NCBI GenBank assembly: GCA_019096065.1
Contig: JAGUCH010000008.1
Span: 2,857,001 to 2,921,000 of the forward strand
Length of the DNA stretch: 64,000 nucleotides
Reading direction: 5' to 3'
Origin: Paracyclopina nana
Taxonomy: Eukaryota; Arthropoda; Copepoda; Cyclopoida; Cyclopettidae
Shown: positions 32,825-56,108 of the stretch, in pieces
How positions within the stretch are numbered: the first letter of the stretch is position 1
How the letters are laid out: every line of letters starts with the position of its first letter
Notes under the pieces: generated by a model
The model's input: the letters and a program-made list of their open reading frames with translations, nothing else
Told to the model about the DNA's origin: nothing
Database searches by the model: none
Position numbers and translations under genes: made by a program

Positions 32825-33776
32825 CTTCATGTGGCGCAGTGGCTCAGTGGCGCAGAGATCAACGGCCATTGCTAATGTTCGCACGCTATTGGTGGGCATG
32901 TGAATGCCAATTTTTATTTGAAACTTCATGTGGCGCAGTGGCTCAGTGGCGCAGAGGTCAACGGCCCATAATAAAGTCCGCGCTCGCTATTGGTGGGCAT
33001 GTGAATGCCATTTTTTCTTTGAAACTTCATGTGGCGCAGTGGCTCAGTGGCGCAGAGGTCAACAGCCAATAATAAAGTCCGCACTCGCTATTGGTGGGCA
33101 TGTGAATGCCAATTTTTATTTTTGAAACTTCATGTGGTGCAGTGGCTCAGTGGCGCAGAGGTCAACCGCCCATAATAAAGTCCGCGCTCGCTATTGGTGG
33201 GCATGTGAATGCCAATTTTTATTTTTGAAACTTCATGTGGTGCAGTGGCTCAGTGGCGCAGAGGTCAACCGCCCATAATAAAGTCCGCGCGCGCTATTGG
33301 TGCGGGCAGGTGAATGGCAATTTTTATATGAAACTTCATGTGGCGCAGTGGCTCAGTGGCGCAGAGGTTAACGGCCCATAATAAAGTCCGCGCACGCTAT
33401 TGGTGCGGGCATGTGAATGGCAATTTTTATTTTTGAAACTTCATGTGGTGCAGTGGCTCAGTGGCGCAGAGGTCAACGGCCCATAATAAAGTCCGCGCTC
33501 GCTATTGGTGGGCATGTGAATGCCATTTTTTCTTTGAAACTTCATGTGGCGCAGTGGCTCAGTGGCGCAGAGGTCAACGGCCTATAATAAAGTCCGCGCG
33601 CGCTATTGGTGCGGGCATGTGAATGGCAATTTTTATTTTTGAAACTTCATGTGGTGCAGTGGCTCAGTGGCGCAGAGGTCAACGGCCCATAATAAAGTCC
33701 GCGCTCGCTATTGGTGGGCATGTGAATGCCATTTTTTCTTTGAAACTTCATGTGGCGCAGTGGCTCAGTGGCGCAG
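32825..33776 (+). repeat. Tandem array of ~100-bp tRNA-like units, left arm
   Basis: About ten units start near 32831, 32930, 33031, 33134, 33237, 33340, 33444, 33545, 33651 and 33750. Each contains GTGGCGCAGTGGCTCAGTGG, in which TGGCGCAGTGG fits the Pol III A-box consensus twice in overlapping register. This is followed by AATAAAGTCCGCGC and a short T-rich stretch. There is no B box, so it may be a degenerate tRNA-derived repeat. The last unit is broken at 33776 by the LTR element and continues at 47663. Confidence 0.8.
33773..33776. repeat. 4-bp target duplication, left (LTR element)
   Basis: GCAG at 33773-33776 is repeated at 47663-47666. Joining the flanks across it restores the array unit (CAGTGGCGCAGAGGTCAACG). 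Confidence 0.8.
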
Positions 33777-34013
33777 TATGAAGAAATGGAACCAGACGAC
33801 GACCACAAGTAGGTCACGACGCCCGATCTCTCTTTTTTTGGCTCTACGCGCACGCCGCTGGTATATGTTACTTCTACCTGCATTTTTACTTCAGTATGCT
33901 AAAGTTTGCTTCGCTCACTTCACCCTAGCAAATAAAGTATACTCAAACCCGTTTCATCACTCTTCTACTCATAAAACTGTTCGAACCCAGTTCTTCACCT
34001 CCATTTCATCATA
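33777..34013 (+). repeat. 5' LTR (237 bp)
   Basis: Identical as read to 47426-47662. It begins TATGA and ends TCATA, a short inverted repeat in place of the common TG...CA. It contains a TATA-like GTATATGTTA at 33861-33870 and a polyadenylation signal AATAAA at 33931-33936. Confidence 0.92.
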
Positions 34014-34375
34014 GTTGGCTCCCACGGAATTGTATCAAGATCACGAGTGGTAGTGAAGTGCTTTTTCCAGAGCGGGGGAGAAATAATATCATCTAAAGAA
34101 GACCTAGCCAGTCTAATTTGGATCGACTCCCTCAACAAAGTCGTACAGTGCTCCATCACTACATCTGAACCATAAAGGTAACCTTGCCTTAGACGAGATT
34201 AGCTACCTCAAAAAAGGACACTTCCGGCTACGCGCCCATATAAGTTAAAAGAGGCCCTTAATTCAGAGTCCCGTGTTGTGACTTACAGCTCAAACAAAGC
34301 CCTTAAGGCAATCTGGGCGGAGCATAGAAGTTCTTTCCTATCAACAACTTACTTTCACGTACATTAGGTTCAAAA
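34014..34375 (+). other. Retroelement leader with candidate primer-binding site
   Basis: A 362-bp untranslated leader. TGGCTCCCACGG starting at 34016, two bases after the LTR, is in the position of a tRNA primer-binding site; the tRNA is not identified. The interval ends in a good start context (CAAAAATGGC) for Gag. Confidence 0.6.
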
Positions 34376-36166
34376 ATGGCTGAATCTGGTGCTCATCATC
34401 ATGACCACCACGAAGAGACTTTAGAGAACGCCATACAAAACGAGCTACTAGGCATTGCAGCTCGCATGGCCGTGCCTCCAAATGAAGTTTCACAAGATCG
34501 CAGAGCAAAACTTGCCACCAACAGGAAAATTGAGAAGCTTGAGAGAAACCTCCTCAAAATGCAAGAAAACGTCGACACCAGCTTCTCAACCATCACCAGA
34601 GCATTGAATGATGTTCATGAGTCAAACAAGGCCATTCTACAGCGCATGGAACCATCTCCGGACTCACCTCCACAAGACCAACCTGAGCCAAGAAGATCTC
34701 GCCGATCAAGTGTGGCATCCTCCATCAGAGGAGACTCTCGAGCACCATCTCCTCATGCCAATGCTGGAGTAGCCCCACTCTTCCAAAGCTTGGCTTATGG
34801 AACTAGCAACCTTCTCCAAGGGAAAACTCATAAATATGAAAAGTCCCTTAAGGATCTGAAGGAATATGCTCGTCACAATTCAGTCCAAAACAGGGTGGAA
34901 ATGGAACGAGATATTATCGCAGCAGAACTCAGGAACGACTTCCTTCAACTCATTCCAAAACTCATCCAAACGCAAAGAATTCCATGCCTGAAAACCGTCC
35001 CTTTCATTCCCGGATCTGATACAAGAGAGTCCAACGCGCTTTTTGTCCAACTAAAAAGAGAAAACTTGAAAGAGTTCCCGAGGTTGAGCAAGGCAAGCCC
35101 AGATGTGAGGCACATTATTGAAGCTATGGCTGAGCGACACGCAGGCGAGCTAACAGCCAAGCAGTTTGCCAACCTCATTATACACCAGACTAACTCTCAA
35201 CTCAAGGACACTTTCACCAACATTTTCAAGAGTCATGATGATATTAATGAAGCTATCAAGGAAATCCTTGAGAGCTATTGTTGCAGCAAGAGACCAGACG
35301 AACTCTTGTGCGAGTTTTATGACTCCAAAATTGACACGAAAAAGGTCGATGACTCGCTAACCAAGATAGTCGAAAAGGCTCGTTTGGCCTTCCCAGAACA
35401 AAGGAACGATGCCTTGACTAAGTTAGTTATCGATCATGTCATTCCCCAGCTGCCTTCAGAGGTACAAAAGGCAGTTAACCTTGAACGGACAAAGATTGCG
35501 GAACTCCAAAAAATATCACCCTTTGTTCCACCCATGGATTTGAACACGTTCAAAAACATGGTTACATCCCATCCTTCCATGACAAAAAGGGTAGTAAAAA
35601 ACTTGGAAGCAGCCCCTCAAGCCATAAATAATGAGCATACCACAACCGCAAGCATAAAAACCGGTTCTTCCAACCACTCCAATGGCCATTTCGCTGCTAA
35701 TAATCAAATCATCTCTGAAATGAAAGAAACGAACCAGTTATTAATGAAAACTGTGGCTGCACTCGAAAATCAGCCCAAGACTTACCCAAACGAAAAGGGA
35801 GGATACAACAGACCTCAAAAGTCTGAGCTGATTGTCTACAAAATTTCTGACCCCAAATTTTCAGAAATAGCAGCCAAGTTTGACAACAAAGGCCCTCTTA
35901 TGAATGTTCTTCTCATGGAAATCGATTCGTATGAACGAAACACCAGAAAGAGAGGCCCAAAGCTCAAGATGCTGGATGATCCACATTCGCGAATTCCCTA
36001 CAAGTTTGACAATCTTGGACGCATTATTCCTGAAAATGCACCAATTGACTTTCCAGTATTTGTTGAAACTCAACCGGGAAAGTATCGCATCTCTTTGAAA
36101 ACTCTTGAAAGAATCTCTATTTCTTGTCTTGAGATGTGGACATTTACTGTGTGGATTCAACGCTGA
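34376..36166 (+). CDS. gag: Gag-like structural polyprotein
   Basis: A 596-aa ORF in the gag position, starting at an ATG in good context 362 bp after the 5' LTR. The N-terminus is His-rich. A predicted coiled coil spans about residues 50-92 (KIEKLERNLLKMQENVD onward). A Ser/Arg-rich linker at about 100-125 precedes a helical region that would be the capsid. There is no zinc knuckle in this frame. A CX2CX4HX4C knuckle lies in the +1-shifted frame immediately downstream (36099-36269), so the last 15-20 residues here are probably out of frame, through an indel or a programmed shift. The Gag call rests on position and general character, not on a recognised domain. Confidence 0.78.
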   Translation: MAESGAHHHDHHEETLENAIQNELLGIAARMAVPPNEVSQDRRAKLATNRKIEKLERNLLKMQENVDTSFSTITRALNDVHESNKAILQRMEPSPDSPPQDQPEPRRSRRSSVASSIRGDSRAPSPHANAGVAPLFQSLAYGTSNLLQGKTHKYEKSLKDLKEYARHNSVQNRVEMERDIIAAELRNDFLQLIPKLIQTQRIPCLKTVPFIPGSDTRESNALFVQLKRENLKEFPRLSKASPDVRHIIEAMAERHAGELTAKQFANLIIHQTNSQLKDTFTNIFKSHDDINEAIKEILESYCCSKRPDELLCEFYDSKIDTKKVDDSLTKIVEKARLAFPEQRNDALTKLVIDHVIPQLPSEVQKAVNLERTKIAELQKISPFVPPMDLNTFKNMVTSHPSMTKRVVKNLEAAPQAINNEHTTTASIKTGSSNHSNGHFAANNQIISEMKETNQLLMKTVAALENQPKTYPNEKGGYNRPQKSELIVYKISDPKFSEIAAKFDNKGPLMNVLLMEIDSYERNTRKRGPKLKMLDDPHSRIPYKFDNLGRIIPENAPIDFPVFVETQPGKYRISLKTLERISISCLEMWTFTVWIQR

Positions 36167-36269
36167 AAATTGCATTTACAAGAGCTCCACTCCTAGCTTC
36201 AATGCATGCTCCAAATGCATGCAAGGTTTCCATCTTGATCACCAATGTCGAGCAGTTCCTTTAAACTAG
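36099..36269 (+). CDS. Gag nucleocapsid segment with CCHC zinc knuckle (other frame)
   Basis: This open segment is shifted +1 relative to the gag ORF it overlaps. It encodes a Cys-rich stretch and then a perfect CX2CX4HX4C knuckle, with Cys codons at 36207, 36216 and 36246 and His at 36231. It has no start of its own and ends at TAG 36267-36269, directly after a TTTAAAC heptamer. It is almost certainly the C-terminal nucleocapsid part of Gag, reached from the upstream frame at about 36100-36165. It is described as a broken or shifted continuation; no joined product is proposed. Confidence 0.72.
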   Translation, partial: KLLKESLFLVLRCGHLLCGFNAENCIYKSSTPSFNACSKCMQGFHLDHQCRAVPLN

Positions 36270-39178
36270 CTCGGCCCTTTCCAAAAACAGCAACTGTAAA
36301 AGAAGAAATATCATTAGTCACATTCTCAGACATTTCACTCGCAGATATTGACACTGAAGATGATGACAATCCCACCATTTCCTCTTCAATCGAACCTGAC
36401 TGGTTAGATTCAGATGCTGCCTTGGAAATCGCATCCTCATTAGACTATCAAGAAATTTCGCAAGTCTCCAAAGTTCTTACTCCAGATATCATTTTAGAAG
36501 GACTCGATCTTCCAGTGATCAACGAAAGTCCTCTAAAAACAGCTTTGACAACAGACTTTGGCCTAAAAGTCGACTTCACTGTCGACTCAGGTGCACAAGT
36601 CTCAATTCTCTCCGTCAAAACTTTCCAAGAGCTTCCTAAAGACAAGTATTCCCTTTCTAATGAACAACTCACATTGGTCGATGTCCAAAAGAATGAAATA
36701 CCACAATACCAGTGTCCAATCGAACTAACCTTCAAACTACAAGGATTTCAGTTTAAGCACACATTTTTCATTGCCTCTTCAAGCAATCTACTTGGTTTAG
36801 ATTTCATAACCACTCACAACCTTCAAATAATCCAACAAAAAGGTAGAACAAACCTCATCATAAGCTTTGAGCAAAGATCTGAACAAAAGTCTCTGCCATC
36901 TCCGGAAGGCTTAGACTCATGGGCTTTAGTGGATGAGATCGAAGTTCTACCCGGATTAAATGAGGTCACTGGCACTCTGGATCTTCCGGATGGCCAATAT
37001 AACTTGTCAATTCCCCGTGAATCACCCTTAAAGACAGTTGGATCACTTTCAGTCAGAGGGGGAAAATTCACTACCACCATGGAAAACAAGTCTACTTCAA
37101 GATTCCCACTTTCCTGCAATGAAATCATTGGAAAAGTAACCACTGAGGATGAAGCCACCAACCAAATAGATGAAGAGACAGTTGAACCAACCGGATTCCC
37201 ATGCTTGATTACAGAAGAAAAAGATGACTGGAAAATGATTATTCGTGATAATCATTCTCACATCGATAAATCTGCAGTTGAAGACATCATATCATTCATC
37301 GAAAAGGAAACACCCAATCTTTTCAGCACACATGAATCCGACATTGGAAAGATCCATGAAAAGTTTGAAATCTTCTTTGACATAGAAACTACAACTGAAA
37401 AACCTGTCTACATCAAACCTTACACCTTGGATCCGCTCAGAGAAGCTCAACTGGCTGACCAACTCGCTGAACTTGAGAAAATTGGAGTTCTGAAAAAAGG
37501 ATTTTCACCATGGGCCATGCCATGTTTCTTGGTCACAAAAAGGAATGGAACATTAAGAGCAGTGTATAATGCTCGTGAACTGAACAAGGTTACAAAACCT
37601 GTTAAGTTCCCCTATAAGCCAATTAACACCATCATCGAAGAAATCTCATTGGCCAACCCCAAATACTTCACCACCATTGACATTGCCTCAGCCTTTCTCT
37701 CTATTCCCATGACAGAGAGAGCACAAAAGATCTGTGCAATTGTCACCAATTCAGGTCAGTGGCTTCCCCTTCGAATGATCTTTGGTCTCTCTAATGCTCC
37801 ATCCTACTACAATTACTGCATGAGCCGCATCCTTGATACTGCAGACAAATCTCCGTGTAAGAGCAACTTTGTGTGCAACTACTCTGATGATGTCTGTCTT
37901 TATTCAAAAAGCTTTGAACTCAACATTCAGCAAACCAAAATCATACTCAGAACACTTTACAATGCTGGAATCAAACTACGACCAAGAAAATTCCAGTTTG
38001 CCCAAAAAAGCATCGAACTTCTCGGCAAACACTTGGACCAAAATGGATTTTCCATTCTTCCTCGACACTTGTCTGCTGTCAAGAACTTTAAAAAGCCTGA
38101 GGACAAACACACTTTGATGTCCTTCATCGGCTTGGCTCAATGGAACGCTAACTTAGTTTATGCCTTTTCTGAAAAATTGAAGCCACTCACCAAACTTTTA
38201 CGGAAAGATGAAGACTTTGCCTGGGGTACCGAACAAGATCAAGCCTTTGACGATATTAAAAATGCCATTATCAACTCTACAACGGTGTACTTTGTGAACT
38301 ATAACGAACCACTCTATCTCCATTATGACAGCAGCCTCAATGCCATTGCTGGCTATTGCTATCAGATCAAGTCCTTCTCCAGGGAGGAAGTCTCCAAATG
38401 GCATGAAGAACTTTATCAAGAGGAATCCCTCGATAGCAAGTCAAAATTGAACACAAAACATCCAGTCATCCCTCCATCTGGAAAAAATAATCCAGGAATG
38501 GTAACACTGTCACCAATAGATGAAGCATTGAAGCAATATGAAAGTAACTTGAAAACCAACAACGAAGAGCTCTTCATCAGAGACATCAGACATGAAGAAC
38601 TTGACGAATTGGAACCCATCTCTACATATCTTCAGGAAAAGGACAAATTACACATAATTTGTCCTGTGGGTTTTTACAGTGCAACGCTCAACAAGCAGCA
38701 ATCCAGATATACCATTCTGGAACTTGAATGCCTTGCCCTTGTGAAATCACTCGAACATTTTGCTCATCTACTTCATGGAGTTCCGACAACTTTTGTTTGT
38801 GGTGATAACATGGCACTTCTGTGGATACTCAAATCATCCAAGCTGTCCCCAAATCCACCTCCAAAGCTAGTGAGATGGTGCATCACGATTAGCTCAATGC
38901 CATTCAAATGCATCTTCCTACATTGCCAAGGAAAATACAATTTGTGTGCAGATGCCATGACTAGAAACTTTCCCATAGTGTATAAAGCTGTTCAAAATGA
39001 TGGTCAACTAGAACCCATTCTCATCACTTCACCGTTCAAGCTTGGTAAGGTTGTCACTTTAAATGATCTCCAAGAATATCTAGAAAAAGTCTATGAAGAA
39101 GGTTTTGAACCCAAGTTCAATGGAGAACAAAAGCTTGGGACACGCAAGAAAAACCTAAAAGACTTTTTCCTACATTGA
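36245..39178 (+). CDS. pol: Pol: aspartic protease, reverse transcriptase, RNase H
   Basis: The ORF is open from 36239; its first ATG gives 977 aa, but entry is probably by frameshift at 36260. An aspartic protease motif DSGA lies at residues 114-117 with LLGLDF at 182-187. RT spans about 380-600: FTTIDIASAF with catalytic D479, LPLRMIFGLSNAPSYYN, and YSDD at 546-549. The connection and RNase H follow Ty3/gypsy style, with D695 in YDSS, E828 in LELECLALV and D854 in CGDN. D695 and E828 are 133 residues apart, versus roughly 45-50 usual for gypsy elements, because of an extra charged segment after D695. The frame closes at 39178, just before the integrase in another frame. Confidence 0.93.
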   Translation: MSSSSFKLARPFPKTATVKEEISLVTFSDISLADIDTEDDDNPTISSSIEPDWLDSDAALEIASSLDYQEISQVSKVLTPDIILEGLDLPVINESPLKTALTTDFGLKVDFTVDSGAQVSILSVKTFQELPKDKYSLSNEQLTLVDVQKNEIPQYQCPIELTFKLQGFQFKHTFFIASSSNLLGLDFITTHNLQIIQQKGRTNLIISFEQRSEQKSLPSPEGLDSWALVDEIEVLPGLNEVTGTLDLPDGQYNLSIPRESPLKTVGSLSVRGGKFTTTMENKSTSRFPLSCNEIIGKVTTEDEATNQIDEETVEPTGFPCLITEEKDDWKMIIRDNHSHIDKSAVEDIISFIEKETPNLFSTHESDIGKIHEKFEIFFDIETTTEKPVYIKPYTLDPLREAQLADQLAELEKIGVLKKGFSPWAMPCFLVTKRNGTLRAVYNARELNKVTKPVKFPYKPINTIIEEISLANPKYFTTIDIASAFLSIPMTERAQKICAIVTNSGQWLPLRMIFGLSNAPSYYNYCMSRILDTADKSPCKSNFVCNYSDDVCLYSKSFELNIQQTKIILRTLYNAGIKLRPRKFQFAQKSIELLGKHLDQNGFSILPRHLSAVKNFKKPEDKHTLMSFIGLAQWNANLVYAFSEKLKPLTKLLRKDEDFAWGTEQDQAFDDIKNAIINSTTVYFVNYNEPLYLHYDSSLNAIAGYCYQIKSFSREEVSKWHEELYQEESLDSKSKLNTKHPVIPPSGKNNPGMVTLSPIDEALKQYESNLKTNNEELFIRDIRHEELDELEPISTYLQEKDKLHIICPVGFYSATLNKQQSRYTILELECLALVKSLEHFAHLLHGVPTTFVCGDNMALLWILKSSKLSPNPPPKLVRWCITISSMPFKCIFLHCQGKYNLCADAMTRNFPIVYKAVQNDGQLEPILITSPFKLGKVVTLNDLQEYLEKVYEEGFEPKFNGEQKLGTRKKNLKDFFLH
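36260..36266 (+). promoter_or_regulatory. -1 programmed ribosomal frameshift site TTTAAAC
   Basis: In the knuckle frame the codons read TTA AAC, followed at once by the stop TAG (36267). In the pol frame the same bases read TTT AAA. T TTA AAC is a canonical X XXY YYZ slippery heptamer, placed exactly at the end of the upstream frame and at the start of the pol frame. A downstream stem-loop or pseudoknot was not identified by eye. Confidence 0.82.
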
Positions 39179-39695
39179 CTCGATTCCGGAGAAGATCCAA
39201 ATTAACTACATTGGTAAGAAAAATCCAAAACATGAACTCGCTGAACTGCTGACTCTTGATAACATCGCAATGGAACAAGAAAAGGATGCCAATATTCAAA
39301 AAATGAGGAGAAATCCAATTAAAGGCTTTGCTTTTGAACAAAATGTTCTATACAAAACTGTTCAAAATCCAGACCAATCCACTGAAAGGAGCCTTATTTA
39401 TATTCCCGATTCTCTTCTTGGTGTACTTTTAGCCTATCTTCATTTGGATTGTCATATAGGAGGAACAAGCTTGGCACGAATGGCTGCTATGACTCATTAT
39501 CATCCCAAGTTATTTAAGTCAGCTTTAAACTTCACAATCCAATGTTATCTTTGCCAACTCGCCAAACCCAATCGACTTGGAAAGGCCAAGCTAAAACCTA
39601 TCTCATATGGAGAATCACCAAAAGGCCATACCTTTTCAATTGACATCCTCGAAGGCTATCCTGAGTTTTACAAAGCTCCAAGATCCTTGTCATGA
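39159..39695 (+). CDS. Integrase N-terminal part: HHCC zinc-binding domain and first catalytic Asp
   Basis: This frame opens at 39159, overlapping the end of pol by about 20 nt and shifted +1 from it; its first ATG is at 39270. Counting from that ATG, H58 and H62 with C92 and C95 form the HHCC zinc-binding domain (YLHLDCHIGG, then CYLC). FSIDILEGY carries the first catalytic aspartate of the DDE core (D125). The frame stops at 39695, where the next ORF continues the core in the pol frame. The segment therefore lies between two opposite single-base shifts, a T-run at 39164-39168 and a point near 39660-39685. Confidence 0.85.
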   Translation, partial: KTFSYIDSIPEKIQINYIGKKNPKHELAELLTLDNIAMEQEKDANIQKMRRNPIKGFAFEQNVLYKTVQNPDQSTERSLIYIPDSLLGVLLAYLHLDCHIGGTSLARMAAMTHYHPKLFKSALNFTIQCYLCQLAKPNRLGKAKLKPISYGESPKGHTFSIDILEGYPEFYKAPRSLS

Positions 39696-40738
39696 TTGAG
39701 TACTTTACTGGTTACAAGATCATAGTACCCGTCAAGAATGCGACTGGTGACGAAATTGCCAAGATTATTGAACAATACATCATTGCAGTGTTTTCACCAC
39801 CTAAAGTCCTCATCTCTGATGGTGCCTCCAACCTTGTCTCCTCATCAAAAGTCAGAAGACTTCTGGAGTATTATGACATCCACCCACATGTGACAATGCC
39901 ATACTCTCCTCAAGCTCACTCAATTGTGGAAAATGCAGTTCAACAAGTCAGCAACCTCATCCGGATTTTGACCAATCAACTTAAACTACCCTGGATCAAA
40001 CTCTTGTATCTTGTTCAACTATCCTTGAACACTCGCCCCTCACCAAGAATTGGCAACATTAGCCCCATTTATGCTTACTTTGGAGTTGATCACGACAGAC
40101 TAAGACCAATTACAGAAAAGGACATTGTCGAACCAAGCACAATCAAAGACATCTGGAAAGCTCATGACGCCATTATACAAGAAGCAATCAATAAGAACAC
40201 TCAGCTCAAAAAGCAAGCAAGAGAAAAGATTCCTGGAAAAGACATCAACTATGAGCCTGGCACTTACGTTTTCATGCTTGATAAGAGAAAACATGAAAAG
40301 CCAAAGATTTGGGTACGTTATCACACGAGCCCTTACCTGGTCCTCAAGAACTTGCAAAACACATGCCTTCTAAAAAGTTTCAATGGAGTTGTCTTTCCTG
40401 CTCACAAGAATCTCCTGAAGAAATGCTCTCCTCGCTTCGCTGAGCTCTATGGAAATTTGCCATTAAGTGTTAGATTCATGCTTGGATCACACTTCACATT
40501 GGAGTCTCTCGAACCGTACATGGAAATCCAAAAGACTCCCGAATTCTTCGATGAGGACATTTTCAAGCCCATTGAAAAGGGCCGTGTAATGACACGTGGT
40601 GAATCAAAAAGACTAAAGGAGCAAGAAAAAGCTCAAAGTGTCAACTCTCAGCTTCCAATCATTGACCAGATGTTCCTGGATGATGAAGAAGATGAACAAG
40701 CAATGCCATATGAACCTACTGTACATTTCGCAGAATGA
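39692..40738 (+). CDS. Integrase catalytic core (C-terminal part) and tail
   Basis: The 348-codon ORF starts at ATG 39692, but its frame is open upstream and already matches the integrase consensus (ILVMIEYFTGY). The second catalytic Asp is D43 (ISDGASN) and the Glu is E80 (SIVENAV), 36 residues apart instead of the usual 35. PWIKLLYLVQLSLNTRPSP and ISPIYAYFG are typical of the core's end. A basic segment and an acidic tail follow, the latter probably a C-terminal DNA-binding or targeting region. The reading frame equals that of pol, so the two shifts around the zinc-binding part compensate each other. Confidence 0.88.
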   Translation: MIEYFTGYKIIVPVKNATGDEIAKIIEQYIIAVFSPPKVLISDGASNLVSSSKVRRLLEYYDIHPHVTMPYSPQAHSIVENAVQQVSNLIRILTNQLKLPWIKLLYLVQLSLNTRPSPRIGNISPIYAYFGVDHDRLRPITEKDIVEPSTIKDIWKAHDAIIQEAINKNTQLKKQAREKIPGKDINYEPGTYVFMLDKRKHEKPKIWVRYHTSPYLVLKNLQNTCLLKSFNGVVFPAHKNLLKKCSPRFAELYGNLPLSVRFMLGSHFTLESLEPYMEIQKTPEFFDEDIFKPIEKGRVMTRGESKRLKEQEKAQSVNSQLPIIDQMFLDDEEDEQAMPYEPTVHFAE

Positions 40739-40814
40739 ATATTAGACAAATGTGATACAAATGATGATGGATGAATGATAACCTCTACACTCTACTTTGA
40801 CTTCTAGCCCAACT

Positions 40815-42083
40815 ATGAGTACAAGGATGAAACAACTTCTGTGGAGTTTGGCGTTGGCAACACTGCTCCACAACACGAGTGTGACAAGCACTCACTTCTG
40901 CAAGGCTTACAACATTGTGTCCTTGTCAGAAACACTCAATCAACTACATCAGCTCCTAGAGCCTCTAGTTGATGCCATCTCGAACCAAATTACTGATGTG
41001 GAGACTTTTGCAAAAGGTCGCATTGTCAACGACAAAGTTTACAAGCTGATCAATGTTCAAGACAAGTTTGCCACTTCAAAATTGGTCTGCGAGATCGAGA
41101 AGATGACTTTCATCAAGCCCAAAGGTGATTTTGCATCTGTTTTAAAGAAGATAGAGGCAGGTGTGAGAGACACACCTAACTTCAAATTCGATGACAAGAA
41201 AATCTGGGTAAATCTTCAATATGACAAAAGAACTGATTCCTACTACTTCGACGGTGAACCATTTCCACTATACTGGGGAGACAATGTTGAGAATCTAAGT
41301 GTCAAGCCTACTTCATTTGATGAAAACAAGTGCTATCGGATCGTCGTACCAAACAATTACGACGACAACACTGTTTTTGTAATTGAAGATGTGGCTTGCA
41401 GGAACGGACAAGCTTTGACACTGTGTGAAGCTGCCATTCCGGACAATTATGAAAAGTACACTTCCCTTCGAAAAGTTTACTCAGCAGAACTCACTACTAT
41501 CAAAGACAACTTCCCAAATGGAAAAGAGTTAATCCAAGAGTTGAATCAAGCTGATTGGTGCGATCAATATCAAGAAAGCAATGTGGATGAACTCTTTCTG
41601 GACCACCCTTTACAAGAAGTGAAGAATCTACTAGAATCTACTCCACCCAATATGGAGTTGATCTTTGACCTTCTTCCTAATCTAGTGAATGATTATGTCA
41701 CAGCGGACAATATTATTCAGAGATTGGATAATAGTGCAAAATCTATGGATGGAAACCAAATTTGCATTTGTGATGAAGAAGAAAAACAAAACTCCGCTGA
41801 AATCAACCCTCCTACTACAGTTATTAATGGCTCTATACCCACTAAGACAAAAAGGCCAAAGGTGATAAAAACACTTCCAGCTGATAAGCCATCAATCAAC
41901 ATCACTGAGATTTTTGATAAGGCAAAAGAAAAACTGCCAGATTGGATCACTAAACATACAAATCCTAAAGTGCTGGATATTATATTTAGTATCATAGGCG
42001 GTATATCTGGAATTGTCACCTTGATCACAAGCCTTTTCCCTCGTCATAAGAAGCTGTCGGAAAGATGGATTTATGTGCCATAA
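40815..42083 (+). CDS. Env-like type I membrane protein 1
   Basis: About 422 aa from ATG 40815. A signal-peptide-like stretch (QLLWSLALATLL) is followed by a long Cys-containing ectodomain with several N-glycosylation sequons (NTS, NLS, NGS, NIT). A C-terminal membrane segment (about residues 387-408) and a short basic tail of 14 residues complete it. Position after integrase and topology are those of an envelope glycoprotein. I recognise no known fusion-protein family and see no clear furin site. A 3' splice-like TTTGACTTCTAG lies just upstream at about 40797-40808, consistent with a spliced subgenomic mRNA. The env role is inference. Confidence 0.72.
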   Translation: MSTRMKQLLWSLALATLLHNTSVTSTHFCKAYNIVSLSETLNQLHQLLEPLVDAISNQITDVETFAKGRIVNDKVYKLINVQDKFATSKLVCEIEKMTFIKPKGDFASVLKKIEAGVRDTPNFKFDDKKIWVNLQYDKRTDSYYFDGEPFPLYWGDNVENLSVKPTSFDENKCYRIVVPNNYDDNTVFVIEDVACRNGQALTLCEAAIPDNYEKYTSLRKVYSAELTTIKDNFPNGKELIQELNQADWCDQYQESNVDELFLDHPLQEVKNLLESTPPNMELIFDLLPNLVNDYVTADNIIQRLDNSAKSMDGNQICICDEEEKQNSAEINPPTTVINGSIPTKTKRPKVIKTLPADKPSINITEIFDKAKEKLPDWITKHTNPKVLDIIFSIIGGISGIVTLITSLFPRHKKLSERWIYVP

Positions 42084-42438
42084 AAGAAAAAGATTTGTTG
42101 CTTTTAAAGTACCTGCCAACAAGGCGAGTCCCAAAACTACCAATCGTAATGAAACTGAAATGGCCACTTTTCTCCCATCAAAAAGGACTCTTCAAGCGAG
42201 GGAAAATGATAAAAGTGATGTCTATTTTGTGACTCAAGATTCAAAATCAAAGAAACAAATGGACAACACAAAACCTTCAAGACCACCAAGAAGAAGCCCA
42301 AGAGCCAAAAGATCTGTAAAAGTGATTGATGTTGCTCATGTCCATAGCATTGATCCCAGGAGACACAGCAACTATTCCTGTTACACAAGTGAGGATGAAA
42401 TTCAAGCAGCAAGCAAAATTCACCCCTACTATGACTAA
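42073..42438 (+). CDS. Basic accessory ORF overlapping the env-like gene
   Basis: 121 aa, starting inside the last codons of the env-like ORF (11-nt overlap, +1 frame). It is rich in Lys, Arg, Ser and Pro, with a cluster PSRPPRRSPRAKRSVK that could serve as a nuclear-localisation or RNA-binding signal. It could be an independent small protein made by reinitiation or splicing, or an alternative longer cytoplasmic tail of the env-like protein reached by frameshift. No family recognised. Confidence 0.45.
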   Translation: MCHKRKRFVAFKVPANKASPKTTNRNETEMATFLPSKRTLQARENDKSDVYFVTQDSKSKKQMDNTKPSRPPRRSPRAKRSVKVIDVAHVHSIDPRRHSNYSCYTSEDEIQAASKIHPYYD

Positions 42439-42520
42439 TGGATATGCAACATCAACTTTTCGCCTTCAAATACAGTATAGCCAAGCATTTTACATCTAGT
42501 TCAACACAACAGCAATTTTA

Positions 42521-43831
42521 ATGAGCCATTATTGCACATTAAGCACGAAGAAGATACACTATCAAATTGCAAAACCTCAGTCTCATCTACTACCAAGAAG
42601 AAGCAACATGAGTCCACTCCAATTCTTCGTCATCACCTTAAGATTGATTTCTGCCATAGAAGCCAAATCAATCTCTGAGATTGAATTCCTCAACAACTAT
42701 GTCCTCAATCAACAACGACTAACCACCTGTCTTGCATCCGAAGCTGAACTCAAGGAAAACAACCAGGAATTGAAGACCAAAATTACCACCTTGACTGATC
42801 AACTTGACAAGTGCCAAACAACCTATGCTGCCATGATAACAGAAGAGAAGGAGAATAACAAATCTACTTATCTGGATCCAACGGCAGACACCGATCTTGA
42901 GGAGCAAGAGGCTCTTTTTCAAAACATAAGTGTGGCCTCTCAAGATTTGATCAATGCTTCATCCAGATTGAATCCCAATCAAGGTCTCCGTGATGTCCCT
43001 TGTCAAAGAAAAGTCATCATCCTGGAAAAACTCTATGATTATGCCAAATCCAAGGTTGAGGATATGCTAATTACCATGTCAGCTCAAGAAGAACGCCTCA
43101 ATACAGAAATCCTTAACCTCCAAAAGGATCTATCCAATCAAAAGGTCCTCAACATTGAGCTCCAAGCTACAATTGCCTCACTAGAAGATGTCAAGACTGG
43201 TACGGTCCCCATTTATGACGAATTGATTGGAACCCCTGGATTCGACACCGCTCTGAGAAACAATCCTACCTTGACGATGTGGCTCACCATCCCCACCTCG
43301 ATCTTAGTCCTCCTGGCTTTGGCATTCTTCACATATCTACTTCATAAGTGCTCAGAGAACAACTTTTTCCTTCTGAGACAGCTTGGAACCAGAGCTAGAA
43401 AATACGTGAAACGTCAAGACAAAAAGTTGAGATCCAGAATCCAAGTACGACTTACCAAGATGAGGAAAGCCAAGGACTCCATGGAAAATGAAAACTTCGA
43501 CGAGGATATTCTTGACCCTTCGAAGGACATCTTAAAGTCTGTGGAGAAAAGCATTATCAAAAACGAGCGTAAACTTGAGGCCATGAAGCACAAAAAGGCC
43601 AAGCTCATGGAGATGATGCCACAACCTGGAAACTCACCTTCAACTCTACCCAACACTCCCACTATTCACGTTGAAACCGCAGTTGAAGTTCATGTCGCTG
43701 ATGACAACAATTCTGACGGCAACAACGTCGATGACGACAACATTGAGGTGAACACTTCTTCCACTGAGAAAATCGTCGCTGATGTCACTGCGGCCTCCCA
43801 AGTTGAAAAGGCCCAGTGTAAAACTGATTAA
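42521..43831 (+). CDS. Env-like membrane protein 2 (coiled-coil ectodomain)
   Basis: 436 aa from ATG 42521. A second ATG at 42608 is immediately followed by a better signal peptide (PLQFFVITLRLISAIEA), so that start is preferred (407 aa). Numbered from 42521, the ectodomain has heptad-rich helices at about 75-105 and 175-225, with N-glycosylation sequons. A membrane segment lies at 253-275, and a long, basic then acidic cytoplasmic tail of about 160 residues follows. A coiled coil next to a membrane anchor resembles the stalk of a fusion subunit or receptor-like protein. With the preceding gene it may form a two-part envelope; this is inference. No homologue recognised. Confidence 0.65.
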   Translation: MSHYCTLSTKKIHYQIAKPQSHLLPRRSNMSPLQFFVITLRLISAIEAKSISEIEFLNNYVLNQQRLTTCLASEAELKENNQELKTKITTLTDQLDKCQTTYAAMITEEKENNKSTYLDPTADTDLEEQEALFQNISVASQDLINASSRLNPNQGLRDVPCQRKVIILEKLYDYAKSKVEDMLITMSAQEERLNTEILNLQKDLSNQKVLNIELQATIASLEDVKTGTVPIYDELIGTPGFDTALRNNPTLTMWLTIPTSILVLLALAFFTYLLHKCSENNFFLLRQLGTRARKYVKRQDKKLRSRIQVRLTKMRKAKDSMENENFDEDILDPSKDILKSVEKSIIKNERKLEAMKHKKAKLMEMMPQPGNSPSTLPNTPTIHVETAVEVHVADDNNSDGNNVDDDNIEVNTSSTEKIVADVTAASQVEKAQCKTD

Positions 43832-44448
43832 AATGCATTTGGAATCACTTGCATCCACTTTCGAATAAAATTAACAAAATCACTTTGTTTTGCCATGCTT
43901 TAGGAAAATGTCAACAAAAATTAAGTTGGTCGGAAAAATAGCTCGATCTAGACACTTCATTTTCCAACCTGATTCTCCATGGATCCAAACGCCAAAATCC
44001 TCACCAATTGGTGCCCTCGATGGCGTAATGGCATTCTCTGATTATATTTTCGCAAAATCTTTGAAAATGATCAAAACCATCAAAGCAAGAATTTTCCCAA
44101 ATTAGCCTTAAAAATAACTGCTCGATTCACACGGCTTGATGATTAGTAAACAACAACAACTGTCATGTGGACCGTGGGAAAATTCATCCTCATTCATCTA
44201 TCAGCTGATGTTTTGACAAGTCATCTCAGGCCTACTTCCGGACACCATAATAAGGAAAGTAAATCTGTCAATTATAAGGAATCTTCAAAAATCAGTCACA
44301 TCACACCTTTCAAAAGTAATTGCCATATATTGGTCATTTGCTGGCTTAACATCATAACAATTATTAAACAAAGTGACTAGATTAAAGCTTCCTCTTCTGT
44401 AAAAGGACAGCCATTCGAGCTGACCTCCTCTCTTGGGCCATCTTGGCC
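43832..44448 (+). other. Small sense ORFs of uncertain status
   Basis: Two ORFs are possible: ATG 43908-44105 (65 aa, basic, preceded by a splice-acceptor-like TTTGCCATGCTTTAG) and ATG 44165-44380 (71 aa with a C-terminal hydrophobic patch). Neither shows a domain. They may be minor accessory ORFs or chance. Confidence 0.3.
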
Positions 44449-45353
44449 CTAATGGCCATCCTCCGACTCGGGACTTCCATTGGAGTTGGGGCAACCTGGC
44501 TGGAAGAATCCAGGCCCCCCTTGACGAAAGGGCTGCTGCCCTTGACCCTCCTGGTCACCGACGACGCCATTGCCATTACTGGCCAGTCCAGCCGAGGCCA
44601 CTACCTCGCCGTTATCGCCGACAGCATCATAAATGCCATCCTCGAGGTTGACATCCTCAAAAGGTGCTGATGGGGTAGGCCAACTCGATTGACCTGACTC
44701 CACATCTTCGGGCCATCTCGCCAAACGGGGGAGGATGAGGTCACGGACCAACACTGTCCTCTCTGTGGAGCCTGGCGGGTGGAAAACGAGAGAGAGGTAC
44801 TCGCCAGACAACACCTCTCTCACAAACGCGTCATTCCCATCGAAGTTCGTGGCTAACAAGTAAGGCAGGACCACGCGCACCAAATTGGCCAACGTCTGAG
44901 CAGCCTCCGTAGGCTTCGGCCTCACTGGCAACTGCTCCTTCCCGCACATGTCATGAAAGACATACCCCAGGAATGGTCCAAACGTCAGCGGGAAGAACAC
45001 AGCTGCCAGGAACTTAACGAAGATGTCAAGCCACACATTCCGGAGAGCCTTGAAGAACACAGGAACAGTGAAAGTGAAAGCTGCCTTTAAAATTCATATC
45101 AACTTACTTTACGACTGAAAAACCCGTACACCATGTACGCGAGGAAGACGAGGAAGACGAGGACCATGTACACCACCACCACCAAGAAACCGAGCTCACC
45201 AATCAACAGTGACCCCACACCTTCTTCAGGCTGACACATATTAGCCTTAAGCCAATTCGGATCCACAAACTTGGACACCTCATTCCGGATCTCGCCGACC
45301 TCCGATGCCACCTTACTGAGCCGGTACTCGTTCATACGCTGAACTGACGACAT
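44449..45353 (-). CDS. Antisense spliced gene A: two-exon membrane protein
   Basis: Exon 1 spans 45353-45108 and exon 2 spans 45048-44449, with a 59-bp intron (GTAAGT donor, pyrimidine-rich TGTTCTTCAAG acceptor). The first frame hits a stop two codons into the intron. Removing the intron joins the frames exactly, giving 281 aa. A hydrophobic segment of about 30 residues (FLVVVVYMVLVFLVFLAYMV) ends exon 1, and another (FLAAVFFPLTFGPFLG) begins exon 2. The C-terminal half is acidic and Gly/Pro-rich. A TTTTCAG acceptor just upstream of ATG 45353 suggests a spliced 5' leader. The region is visibly more GC-rich than the sense genes, hinting at separate origin. No family recognised. Confidence 0.62.
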
Positions 45354-45446
45354 GATGCTGAAAAGTCAATGATTAAACAAAGTGATTGACAGTAAAGCAA
45401 AACTAGCAAACTTAAAAAGGCTGAGGAAACATCTATTTACAAAAGC

Positions 45447-46108
45447 TTAACAGAAAGGAAAAAGAGGGAAGAAGAAACAGAATGGAGAAACTGGTGGCGA
45501 ATAGGACATGGTTTGTGACACCACCAGGATCATCAACACCATAGCCATCAATCCGTATCGCCTGGTTGACCCTGACCAGACGAGGACTCCATAAAAGAGG
45601 CTGGCAAGGCCTCCAGCCAGGCCTACAATGATGCCAATCAGAGCCAAGATCAGCCTTCTCAAAAGTCTTCGTCGCCATCTCCCAGCTTCCACTCTACTTG
45701 GCCCTCCATAGTAATCCCGCCATGCCATCCGATAGTCAAGTGATGCCAAGGCCAGAATGGCCATGGCAAGGACCCAAAGAGCCCTTAGACGAGGTGACAA
45801 GCCCGACGCAGCCTCCGTCAACGCCTCCAAATCCACAAGGAATCTCTTCAAAAGGCGAATTACTTCTTGACTAGAATCGTTGGCCATCCAGAATTGGAGG
45901 CCATGGGCAATAAGCTCCGTTATGAAATCAGCCATCTACAAATCAAATGTTTCCACAGCCCTGAAGAAAATGCTAAGGTGTAACTTACCTTGACAAAGAC
46001 TCCGCAAAAAACCGTAATGGTGACTGACCGGGAATGAAAATTCGAATGACCTGGCTTATGAATGCTACCCAAAAAAGTTGACCTCATGTCCCTGCTTCTC
46101 AACCTCAT
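45447..46108 (-). CDS. Antisense spliced gene B: multi-pass membrane protein
   Basis: A long open exon (45935-45447, 162 codons) begins at ATG right after an acceptor TTTGATTTGTAG. The upstream exon 46108-45989 (40 codons from its ATG) ends at a GTAAGT donor, and the 53-bp intron joins the frames in phase, giving about 202 aa. Translation could equally start at 45935. Three hydrophobic helices are evident (ALWVLAMAILALASL; LILALIGIIVGLAGGLASLF; LMAMVLMILVV), separated by an Arg-rich loop. This suggests a small viroporin- or tetraspanin-like membrane protein; function is unknown. GC content is high, as in gene A. Confidence 0.6.
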
Positions 46109-46254
46109 GCAAGAGACAGGTTAATACAGCCCATTCAGCCCGCTACAGGTCCACACTCCTGACTTCACCTGTTGCCACCACAAGTCTGTTCAGCTATACG
46201 TGCACTCCTAAGCCAAATTCAAGCTAGTTGCCTGACAACAGCTACCAGACAAAG

Positions 46255-46755
46255 ATGCATCTTTTGCAACTATTGCTCGAAAGCACCAATCTAATCATGC
46301 AAACATGGCTTACCTTGGCCTCGTTCATTTGCATGATCATTGGAGCGTTTACGATCGTGGCCAAAATTATCTCATTAAGAAAAATGAAGAAAACTCAAAT
46401 CATTCATGTGACCATTGGCATCTCTAAAATCTTGAAAGCCTTCAATTTAGTGACATTTGTTGAAGCTTCATCAAACTCAACCATAGAATATCACGGAACA
46501 CTTTGTCGCATCATCATCAACTACTCTTTCTGCAACAACTATTTTCACTTCCTTATGGATTCGCCAATCAAAAAGATCAATTTCATTTGTGAACCGCACT
46601 CAATTGAAGAACTCATTCTGGACATTGATGAATTAAGCAGATTGAAGTCCATTGAAGACACAGTACAGAAACTTTACAGGCTTGCCTTCAGGGGAAACTC
46701 CACTACTAACCGCCAAAGAGGACTCGCCCGACATGAAGCAAGAAACAGGTTTTAA
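46255..46755 (+). CDS. Sense small membrane protein near the 3' LTR
   Basis: 166 aa from ATG 46255 (the frame is open from 46228). An N-terminal leader is followed by a hydrophobic segment (WLTLASFICMIIGAFTIVAK) and a mostly hydrophilic remainder, making it probably a single-pass membrane protein. It lies between two antisense genes and converges on the 3'-LTR-proximal one. No family recognised. Confidence 0.5.
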   Translation: MHLLQLLLESTNLIMQTWLTLASFICMIIGAFTIVAKIISLRKMKKTQIIHVTIGISKILKAFNLVTFVEASSNSTIEYHGTLCRIIINYSFCNNYFHFLMDSPIKKINFICEPHSIEELILDIDELSRLKSIEDTVQKLYRLAFRGNSTTNRQRGLARHEARNRF

Positions 46756-46824
46756 TACCAGCCCACAACGAAATCTACAATAAGTCCACATGGAGAAGAT
46801 CAGCCCAAAAACATCACTAACGAT

Positions 46825-47390
46825 TTATTCATCATCTTTCTCATTCTCAAAAGTATCATACTCTAATGATATTTCATCACACAACATAACTTCCCTGGAA
46901 ACAGCTTCCACTTGGTCATCTTCATCACCCATATTTGAAATAGTAATCTCAAGACTCTCTCTTGTCTCCATCATAATGCCTGATCCGGATTTTGAAGATG
47001 ACGCTGCCCTTATTTGGTTGGAGTCCTCTAAAACCAGATCACGGAAATATGACAAGTCAATGTGAAGATTCTTCTCAAGAGCCCTCCGCACTTTTCTCCT
47101 GAATATTGGTGATCTCTTCAAATACCGGCATACCTCCTCGTACTGTCTCCTTTTCAACGACAAAATGATCCTTTTCAACGTATTCACCAATGATGCGGCC
47201 TCCAACCTAAAATTGACACTTCTTGGGTCGACCCCATCGCCATTCCCCAGTTCGTCCATGGGCAAACGATGGATCATCATAAGAAGATCGACATAGGCAA
47301 TGCAAATCGACACCTAAATTGGAAAAATCACATTATTATAGACGTCGTGATTCATTTCTTCAATCATACCTGACTGGTCCTAGCCTTCAT
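46825..47390 (-). CDS. Antisense spliced gene C, starting beside the 3' LTR
   Basis: Exon 1 (47390-47370) is ATG plus six codons, ending at a GT donor in CAG|GTATGA. A 56-bp intron ends TTTTTCCAATTTAG, and exon 2 (47313-46825) continues in phase, giving 169 aa. The start codon lies 36 bp from the 3' LTR, so transcription probably initiates inside that LTR on the opposite strand. The middle is basic (RRQYEEVCRYLKR; RRKVRRALEK) and the C-terminus acidic (GDEDD; ENEKDDE), with no membrane segment. A nuclear or regulatory role is conceivable. The layout recalls HTLV-type antisense genes, but I see no sequence homology. Confidence 0.62.
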
Positions 47391-47414
47391 CGTGGAAGGC
47401 TAGCTTCTTCTTCC

Positions 47415-47425
47415 GGGGGGATATC
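47415..47425 (+). promoter_or_regulatory. Candidate polypurine tract
   Basis: A run of six G followed by ATATC directly abuts the 3' LTR, the position expected for the plus-strand primer. It is short. Confidence 0.45.
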
Positions 47426-47662
47426 TATGAAGAAATGGAACCAGACGACGACCACAAGTAGGTCACGACGCCCGATCTCTCTTTTTTTGGCTCTACGCGC
47501 ACGCCGCTGGTATATGTTACTTCTACCTGCATTTTTACTTCAGTATGCTAAAGTTTGCTTCGCTCACTTCACCCTAGCAAATAAAGTATACTCAAACCCG
47601 TTTCATCACTCTTCTACTCATAAAACTGTTCGAACCCAGTTCTTCACCTCCATTTCATCATA
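47426..47662 (+). repeat. 3' LTR (237 bp)
   Basis: It matches 33777-34013 at every base compared, with AATAAA at 47580-47585. Followed by GCAG (47663-47666), the right copy of the target duplication. Confidence 0.92.
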
Positions 47663-47910
47663 GCAGAGGTCAACGGCCTATAATAAAGTCCGCGCGCGCT
47701 ATTGGTGCGGGCAGGTGAATGGCAATTTTTATATGAAACTTCATGTGGCGCAGTGGCTCAGTGGCGCAGAGGTTAACGGCCCATAATAAAGTCCGCGCGC
47801 GCTATTGGTGCGGGCATGTGAATGGCAATTTTTATTTGAAACTTCATGTGGCGCAGTGGCTCAGTGGCGCAGAGGTCAACGGCCAATAATAAAGTCCGCG
47901 CGCTATTGGA
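47663..47910 (+). repeat. Continuation of the tRNA-like tandem array after the LTR element
   Basis: The array unit broken at 33776 resumes, with further units starting near 47744 and 47848. The array ends in GCGCGCTATTGG and passes into satellite-flanking sequence. Confidence 0.8.
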
Positions 47911-48437
47911 CTTTTTGGACTAATTTGACTTCTTGGTCTATTGACTTTTTTGCTTTGATTCAGAGCATAAAAAAGAATATGCTAGTTTCAGTTAGTTTTT
48001 TCACTAGGAGATTAGTCTTGTCAAAACTAGATGAAACAAAGGCCAAAGTTTTGACCAGGCTAGTCTCCTAGTGAAAAAACAAAGTGAAGCTAACATATTT
48101 TTTGAACATTTTTTTGAGCTAGGAGCGAAACTCGCGTAACGTGAATAATTGCAAGAGCAAAATTGCATTTTTTGACAAAGGCCAAACTTTGGCCTTTGTT
48201 TCATCTAGTTTTGACCAGGCTAGTCTCCTAGTGAAAAAACTAACTGAAGTTAGCATGTTTTTTGAACATTTTTTTAAGCTAGGAGCGAAACTCGCGTAAC
48301 GTGAATAATTGCCTGAGCAAAATTGCATTTTTTTGACAAAGTCCAAACTTTGGCCTTTGTTTCATCTAGTTTTGACCAGGCTAGTCTCCTAGTGAAAAAA
48401 CTAACTGAAGTTAGCATGTTTTTTGAACATTTTTTTA

Positions 48438-56100: not shown

Positions 56101-56108
56101 TAAGTCTG
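56101..56108. repeat. 8-bp target-site duplication, right (outer element)
   Basis: TAAGTCTG, identical to 25956-25963. Confidence 0.85.

What the first reader, a model, noticed from the sequence alone, without database searches (positions are those of the whole stretch)
33777..47662. A 13.9-kb ambisense, env-bearing LTR retroelement that may be undescribed
Seen: identical 237-bp LTRs, gag/pol/integrase, two signal-peptide/TM proteins, a third TM ORF, and at least three opposite-strand ORF groups with GT/AG introns in the 3' third. Known: Ty3/gypsy elements with env are typically far shorter and code on one strand. Inference: this is a complex retrovirus-like lineage with a regulated antisense programme.
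Basis: partly seen in the sequence, partly recalled or inferred. Interest (0 to 1): 0.92.

Follow-up and report, generated by a model that had tools for sequence, protein, structure and literature searches.

The report
Retroelement with conserved genes on both strands
A recently active, 13.9-kb retrovirus-like jumping element in an animal genome carries, besides the usual genes, small intron-bearing genes on the opposite strand that natural selection appears to have kept intact, an arrangement known from some plant elements and a few vertebrate retroviruses.

Summary
Window 33777-47662 is one complete LTR retroelement and one of 11 copies found in a 92-Mb animal genome. All 11 have 4-bp target duplications and 10 of 11 have identical LTR pairs, so the family moved recently. 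RT is Ty3-like; its nearest relative in a 5.8-billion-protein search is 39% identical. The antisense ORFs are not chance: variation among copies shows AS1 and AS2 constrained in their antisense frames (omega-like 0.20, 0.21, 0.11) about as strongly as gag and pol (0.25, 0.24); AS3 is open in 11 of 11 copies but not significantly constrained (0.56). Predicted GT/AG introns are conserved, and AS1's intron lies at the same codon in diverged paralogs (by eye). The window copy itself is damaged in integrase and env tail. Antisense ORFs 3' of pol are known in plant elements and retroviruses, so this is a new variant of a known kind; several spliced antisense genes in an animal env-bearing Ty3-like element did not turn up in my searches. 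Transcription and function are untested.

The parts
33773..33776 (.). left target-site duplication GCAG, in a 103-bp satellite array
33777..34013 (+). 5' LTR, 237 bp, TATGA...TCATA; AATAAA at 33931
34016..34027 (+). candidate primer binding site (TGG...), 2 nt after the LTR; tRNA not identified
   Evidence: read by eye; searches gave no tRNA
34376..36166 (+). gag-like ORF (596 aa; its end differs in length from the other copies)
   Evidence: omega-like 0.25; no Pfam match above cut-off
36245..39178 (+). protease region / reverse transcriptase / RNase H (RVT_1, RT_RNaseH_2); protease not matched by Pfam
   Evidence: omega-like 0.24 (7 copies)
39270..40738 (+). integrase (H2C2, rve, both below Pfam cut-off), in two broken frames in this copy
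   Evidence: omega-like 0.18 for 39692-40735
40797..42438 (+). env-like membrane protein: part 40797-42083 with a TM near its end, and basic tail 42073-42438; one 552-553-aa frame in 9 of 11 copies
   Evidence: omega-like 0.37 and 0.09
42521..43831 (+). second membrane protein ORF436: coiled-coil-like ectodomain (by eye), one TM, charged tail
   Evidence: omega-like 0.42
44449..45048 (-). AS1 exon 2 (antisense membrane protein, C-terminal part)
   Evidence: omega-like 0.21, 0/2000 simulations as low
45049..45107 (-). AS1 intron, 59 nt GTAAGT...AG; position shared with diverged paralogs
   Evidence: by eye
45108..45353 (-). AS1 exon 1 (82 aa; 40-residue hydrophobic stretch)
   Evidence: omega-like 0.20, 6/2000
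45447..45935 (-). AS2, antisense membrane protein, 162 aa, two hydrophobic stretches
   Evidence: omega-like 0.11, 0/2000
45936..45988 (-). predicted intron joining a leader exon to AS2
45989..46087 (-). predicted AS2 leader exon (possible N-terminal extension; an earlier in-frame ATG lies at 46108)
   Evidence: inference
46091..46254 (.). 164-bp block between AS2 leader and the sense TM ORF, 1 variable site among 8 copies compared; candidate bidirectional promoter
   Evidence: role inferred
46228..46755 (+). sense ORF, 175 aa (166 aa from ATG 46255), one TM
   Evidence: omega-like 0.16, 0/2000
46825..47313 (-). AS3 exon 2, charged protein without hydrophobic stretch, open in 11 of 11 copies; AATAAA overlaps its stop
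   Evidence: omega-like 0.56, not significant
47314..47369 (-). AS3 intron, 56 nt GT...TTTAG
47370..47390 (-). AS3 exon 1 (7 codons), about 35 bp inside the 3' LTR border
47426..47662 (+). 3' LTR, identical to the 5' LTR; candidate antisense promoter for AS3
   Evidence: promoter role inferred
47663..47666 (.). right target-site duplication GCAG

Best explanation
A recently active family of Ty3-like, env-bearing LTR retroelements in an animal. Shown: the sense strand encodes gag-like, pol, an env-like membrane protein and a second TM protein; the 3' third carries minus-strand genes AS1, AS2 and AS3 plus a small sense TM gene, and AS1, AS2 and the sense TM gene show codon-level constraint. Inferred: AS2 and AS1 are spliced mRNAs from an internal bidirectional promoter at about 46091-46254 shared with the sense TM gene, and AS3 is a spliced mRNA starting in or next to the 3' LTR, as HTLV hbz does. 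Because the genomic RNA is the sense strand, antisense introns are not removed from it, so intron-bearing genes can pass through reverse transcription only in this orientation. Proposed roles (weak inference from hydropathy): AS1, AS2 and the sense TM protein act at membranes (assembly, entry or superinfection control), AS3 as a nuclear regulator.
For: 11 copies, 4-bp TSDs in 11 of 11, identical LTR pairs in 10 of 11. Codon test (C1 left out; 8 other copies hold AS1/AS2, 9 the sense TM ORF and AS3, 9 gag, 7 pol): AS1 exon 1 0.20 (6/2000), AS1 exon 2 0.21 (0/2000), AS2 0.11 (0/2000), sense TM ORF 0.16 (0/2000), against gag 0.25 and pro-RT-RH 0.24. Splice motifs kept: AS1 and AS2-leader introns in 9 of 9 other copies that hold the region, AS3 intron in 9 of 9 copies looked at (C1 not looked at). 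AS1 intron at the same codon and phase in paralogs C7 and C3 (by eye) whose AS1 blocks are 26-34% identical to the window's and differ from each other by dN 0.071, dS 0.585. RT best matched by Ty3 among solved structures.
Against: No RNA evidence of any kind. AS3 is not significantly constrained over its length (383/2000), and its second half has 6 replacement against 1 silent change. AS1 exon 1 is full and open in 7 of 11 copies: C6 has a stop, C7b and C1 align only in part, C3b lacks it. The sense TM ORF is open in 7 of 11: broken in C7b, C9b and C1, partial in C3b. Absence of new stops among AS variant sites says little, 0.2-1.1 being expected. The test counts each variant site once but ignores relatedness, and drops sites near gaps. 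AS1 has no relative in the protein search; AS2, AS3, ORF436 and the sense TM protein were not searched there. No accessory protein has a Pfam match above cut-off. The low variation of 46091-46254 (6 per kb) is only suggestive: other non-coding blocks range from 0 to 101 per kb.
Confidence: 0.72

Rival explanations
1. The AS2-AS1 cassette is a captured host (or foreign element) gene pair that rides along as a passenger; its constraint reflects function at other loci, not a role in the element.
For: AS1 relatives exist outside the family at C3:1094851, C7:5621616 and C8:6744325, preceded at C3 and C8 by an AS2-like frame on the same strand; introns are retained; GC is 0.47-0.56 in 44200-46199 against 0.37-0.45 in the 1-2 kb on either side, though the gag region also reaches 0.47.
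Against: The constraint is seen among copies of the element itself, that is after capture, although part of the copy-to-copy variation could be older than the present family. At C7 the AS1 paralog lies beside an env-like relative, so the two may belong to a related element.
Confidence: 0.2
2. Antisense transcription matters as RNA (silencing or interference) and the ORFs are incidental.
For: Antisense RNAs without coding capacity are described for other elements (PMC7264820 passage).
Against: Third-position excess in the antisense frames (codon positions 1/2/3: AS1 exon 2 7/3/18, AS2 2/1/12) is protein-level constraint. The sense frame that shares wobble positions also scores low (0.28 and 0.20) but is interrupted by stops.
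Confidence: 0.05
3. Chance open frames on the opposite strand.
For: Antisense frames can stay open by composition; AS3 is not significantly constrained.
Against: Simulation, codon test, conserved intron position.
Confidence: 0.03

Closest known systems
Plant LTR elements with antisense aORFs: Retand, Grande, RIRE2 (PMC11963269, PMC7264820)
   Same: Long region between pol and 3' LTR (here 6.7 kb, env included) with conserved ORFs antisense to gag-pol; Grande gene23 has its own promoter by report.
   Different: Animal host; no Pfam domain (so no TRP28) found in AS1-AS3; an env-like gene is present; antisense genes here include membrane proteins and predicted introns.
Deltaretrovirus hbz / APH genes and HIV-1 asp (PMC10186651)
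   Same: AS3 resembles hbz in being a spliced-type antisense gene next to the 3' LTR (the exon layout of hbz is recalled); AS1/AS2 resemble ASP, called a transmembrane protein in a reference title seen.
   Different: No sequence relation tested or bZIP found; the AS genes do not overlap env; AS2/AS1 would need an internal promoter; RT is Ty3-like.
Bdelloid rotifer LTR retrotransposons with captured ORF3s (PMC5408684)
   Same: Modular extra ORFs 3' of pol, including TM proteins without database relatives, in an invertebrate (abstract and passages).
   Different: The one mention of 'antisense' concerns small RNAs; no antisense genes in the passages seen.
C. elegans Cer1 with CERV (PMC10309623, abstract only)
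   Same: Invertebrate LTR retrotransposon with an extra protein from a spliced mRNA.
   Different: The abstract states no antisense gene.

Membership tests
Ty3/gypsy (Metaviridae) | RT most similar to Ty3 RT | tested here: met
   Ty3-G Gag-Pol 7q5b 2.1e-37 and 4ol8 (recalled as Ty3 RT) 1.8e-38; next Gag-Pol 1.2e-22
Ty3/gypsy (Metaviridae) | domain order RT-RNase H-integrase | tested here: met
   RVT_1, RT_RNaseH_2, then H2C2 (E 3.8e-4) and rve (E 4.9e-5), the last two below Pfam cut-off in this broken copy
Ty3/gypsy (Metaviridae) | LTRs with 4-6 bp TSD and TG...CA termini | tested here: inconclusive
   4-bp TSD in 11 of 11, but outer termini are TA-TG...CA-TA in 11 of 11
Ty3/gypsy (Metaviridae) | tRNA primer binding site | tested here: inconclusive
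   TGG 2 nt after the LTR; no tRNA identified, only 2 of 28 non-element sites looked at
Ty3/gypsy (Metaviridae) | place in a tree with named clades | not testable with these tools
   tree held only unnamed rows; window and P0002 pair at 100/100, both long branches
Errantivirus / catalogued env families | env related to a catalogued viral fusion protein | tested here: not met
   no Pfam match at E up to 1, no solved relative (best E 0.066)
Retand-type plant element | antisense TRP28 domain | tested here: not met
   no Pfam family in AS1, AS2, AS3 at E up to 0.01
Retand-type plant element | conserved antisense ORFs between pol and 3' LTR | tested here: met
HTLV-type antisense gene | spliced antisense transcript from the 3' LTR | not testable with these tools
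   AS3 exon-intron anatomy fits; no RNA data
Troyka | 3-bp TSD and CG...CG termini (PMC12440569 abstract) | tested here: not met
   4-bp TSD, TA...TA

The most novel reading that the evidence does not exclude
An animal retroelement lineage that is truly ambisense: a sense retroviral genome plus a divergently transcribed, multi-gene, intron-bearing antisense unit of membrane proteins (AS2, AS1) and an LTR-driven antisense regulator (AS3). The antisense orientation is what lets intron-bearing genes survive the RNA stage, and the AS1 module has moved as a cassette: at C7 an AS1 relative lies on the same strand as an env relative.
Probability: 0.4. Interest if true: 0.82.

Novelty: new variant of a known kind. 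Interest (0 to 1): 0.66.

Why it matters
Antisense genes of retroviruses and retroelements are argued case by case. Here a young multicopy family gives a natural replicate set in which antisense coding can be tested by codon statistics, and two antisense genes pass about as strongly as gag and pol. It suggests a general rule, that retroelements can carry intron-bearing genes if these point backwards, and offers an invertebrate system to test what antisense membrane proteins do.

Tried and rejected
Primer tRNA: an 18-base pattern from the leader, up to 3 mismatches, gave 39 sites, 11 of them the element's own copies; 2 of the other 28 were fetched and are not tRNAs, the rest were not looked at. 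Host naming: one actin gene (L063) is closest to animal cytoplasmic actins; the species stayed unnamed and the rRNA search did not complete. Viral contigs: three scans (pol alignment, env alignment, P0002) gave no relative. Structure of env: tool switched off. A C-type-lectin-like look of the env cysteine motif was considered by eye and dropped; neither Pfam nor the solved-structure profile search supports it. The Monjiviricetes-type glycoprotein next to AS1 at C7 was first taken as a gene partner; one search gives 73 matching stretches of it in the genome, several about 3 kb past an RT of other gypsy families, so the adjacency may be chance. A 113-bp direct repeat around AS1 at C7 was looked at as possible LTRs and shows no clean ends. 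In one search AS1 exon 1 was scored in a frame off by one base (1.66); one search repeats it in the right frame (0.20). One search's pol row lacked the pol loci (one variant); one search used L010-L016.
Full report
Observation. The stretch 33777-47662 is a complete LTR retroelement. The LTRs are 33777-34013 and 47426-47662, 237 bp and identical, with short inverted termini TATGA...TCATA, and the insertion is flanked by GCAG on both sides. It sits in a 103-bp satellite array. The window is C8:2857001-2921000 of a 92-Mb genome in 10 contigs. An actin gene from that genome is closest to animal cytoplasmic actins, so the host is taken to be an animal; the species is unknown to me.

Copies. A search with the RT reading frame finds, besides the window, ten further copies, four of them (C8b, C7b, C9b, C1) in several pieces. 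I fetched 3' and 5' stretches of all ten. All ten carry both LTRs, all 11 copies have a 4-bp target duplication, and the two LTRs are identical in 10 of 11; the two LTRs of C1 differ by small gaps. The family is therefore young. The antisense region is present in 10 of 11 copies; in C3b a deletion runs from inside ORF436 into the sense TM ORF. C1 is the most damaged copy.

Sense genes. The gag-like ORF 34376-36166 has no Pfam match above cut-off (one weak match below it). RVT_1 and RNase H domains are well above cut-off; H2C2 and rve are below it. In four other copies the pol frame is 1491-1500 aa long; in the window copy it is split into 977, 141 and 348 aa. The env-like ORF lies in a 552-aa frame in 8 copies and 553 aa in one, of 11; in the window it is split into 428 and 121 aa. 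It has one TM near the end of the 428-aa part and four NXS/T sites; ORF436 has one TM at residues 249-275. env has no Pfam match at E up to 1; ORF436 has three chance-level ones below cut-off. A search of 5.8 billion proteins finds two env relatives, 97% and 54% identical, both without names and with source tag lgn, which I take to be Logan, so a related element exists in other sequenced material.

Antisense genes. AS1 (exons 45353-45108 and 45048-44452), AS2 (45935-45450, with a predicted leader exon) and AS3 (exons 47390-47370 and 47313-46828). Frames of this number and length are not expected by chance. Of 11 copies, AS2 is open in 9; AS3 in 11 (10, C7a); the AS1 exon-2 frame in 8, and C8b, whose one TAG falls on the intron's AG in the alignment, would make 9; AS1 exon 1 is full and open in 7. 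For comparison the gag frame is open in 8 of 11.

Selection test. For each frame I took every site at which one of the other copies differs from the window, classed it as replacement or silent, and compared with 2000 simulations that place the same base changes at random (C1 left out; sites within 5 columns of a gap dropped; 9 copies for gag, 7 for pro-RT-RH, 9 for the 3' rows, of which 8 hold AS1 and AS2). Omega-like ratios: gag 0.25, pro-RT-RH 0.24, integrase part 0.18, env 0.37, env tail 0.09, ORF436 0.42, AS1 exon 1 0.20, AS1 exon 2 0.21, AS2 0.11, sense TM ORF 0.16, AS3 0.56. All but AS3 have at most 37 of 2000 simulations as low. AS3's first half gives 0.21 (51/2000), its second half 2.71 (1865/2000). 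The simpler six-frame test also gives low values in the one opposite frame that shares wobble positions, as it does for gag; for AS1 exon 2 and AS2 that sense frame is interrupted by stops. The test does not correct for relatedness of copies.

Introns. The AS1 donor GTAAGT and acceptor AG, and the AS2-leader donor and acceptor, are kept in the nine other copies that hold the region, with small length changes beside the AS1 sites in C8b, C7b and C1. The AS3 intron is kept in 9 of 9 copies looked at. Support for the AS1 intron also comes from outside the family: AS1-like genes at C7 and C3 have a GT...AG intron at the same codon and phase, and a second GT...AG gap that the window gene lacks (read by eye). 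Between C3 and C7, dN is 0.071 and dS 0.585 over the aligned exon blocks, the last block being imperfectly aligned at its end, so AS1 has long been a protein-coding gene, also outside this family.

Where the cassette comes from. In two six-frame searches AS1 relatives outside the family appear at three places: C3:1094851, C7:5621616 and C8:6744325. At C3 and C8 an AS2-like frame precedes the AS1-like one on the same strand, as in the window; their link to the window's AS2 is weak and rests on L061 (27%, E 1.9e-4). At C7 an env relative (26% and E 1.8e-6; 21% and E 1.7e-9) follows AS1 on the same strand, unlike the window, where env and AS1 converge. No pol of this family lies there among the scored hits (47 of 532 candidates scored). 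This fits either an older related element with another gene order, or a cassette that moves between contexts. I could not fetch enough flanking sequence to decide.

Place among retroelements. The RT is nearest Ty3 among solved structures. Its nearest protein relative is P0002, 39% over the RT; the other 11 hits are 25-30%. In a tree of 29 unnamed rows the window and P0002 pair at 100/100 on a long stem, apart from the two host gypsy groups included; both are long branches, whose place the tool calls unsure. A named clade could not be assigned.

Mechanism. Shown: structure, recency, constraint on AS1, AS2 and the sense TM ORF, intron conservation. Inferred: AS2 and the sense TM ORF start head-to-head across 46091-46254, where 1 of 164 sites varies among 8 copies (6 per kb), against 31-61 per kb in the coding blocks of the region; other non-coding blocks run from 0 to 101 per kb, so this is only suggestive of a shared promoter. 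AS3's first exon begins about 35 bp inside the 3' LTR border, in a 53-bp stretch without variation that also holds the likely polypurine tract (by eye), and an AATAAA overlaps its stop, which fits a compact LTR-driven antisense unit like HTLV hbz (PMC10186651 passages). Since the packaged RNA is the sense strand, introns that point backwards stay in it; this would explain both the orientation and the retained introns. Functions of the proteins are guesses from hydropathy.

Literature. Seen: abstract and passages of PMC11963269 and PMC5408684; passages of PMC7264820, PMC8220671 and PMC10186651; abstracts of PMC10309623 and PMC12440569; search listings otherwise. Plant antisense aORFs and vertebrate retroviral antisense genes are established. 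The listings showed no animal Ty3-like element with several antisense genes; subscription journals, Repbase notes and preprints are not covered, so absence from print is not shown.

Verdict. A real and unusual element; new variant of a known kind. The antisense coding of AS1 and AS2 is well supported, AS3 less so, and the regulatory programme is unproven.

Noticed in passing
C7:5622614-5624491 (L062) and other places in the host genome: A Monjiviricetes-type fusion glycoprotein (PF24664, E 1.4e-72) has 73 matching stretches in this genome, several about 3 kb past an RT listed: apparently the env of separate gypsy families.
   Followed up: partly
L059 559-1650 with L059 2284-2745 and L062 156-509: An env relative and an AS1 relative of this element lie on the same strand at C7, an order unlike the window; a 113-bp direct repeat (99%) flanks AS1 there.
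   Followed up: partly
window 33011-33776 and 47709-47938: 103-bp tandem satellite into which the element inserted.
   Followed up: no
window 26058-28325 and 53866-56145, minus: Long open frames without Pfam matches; the first is made of a degenerate SEVDE-type repeat, the second was not read. The C3b copy of the element sits in DNA that by eye looks like such a repeat.
   Followed up: no
window 47972-48424: Inverted repeats of 57-84 bp just outside the element.
   Followed up: no
window 43864: AATAAA on the sense strand just after ORF436, a possible internal polyadenylation signal.
   Followed up: no
ORF436 in L039, L047, L048: Length differences among copies in ORF436: longer in C9a, and about 140 bp matched twice near the end in C5 and C1.
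   Followed up: no
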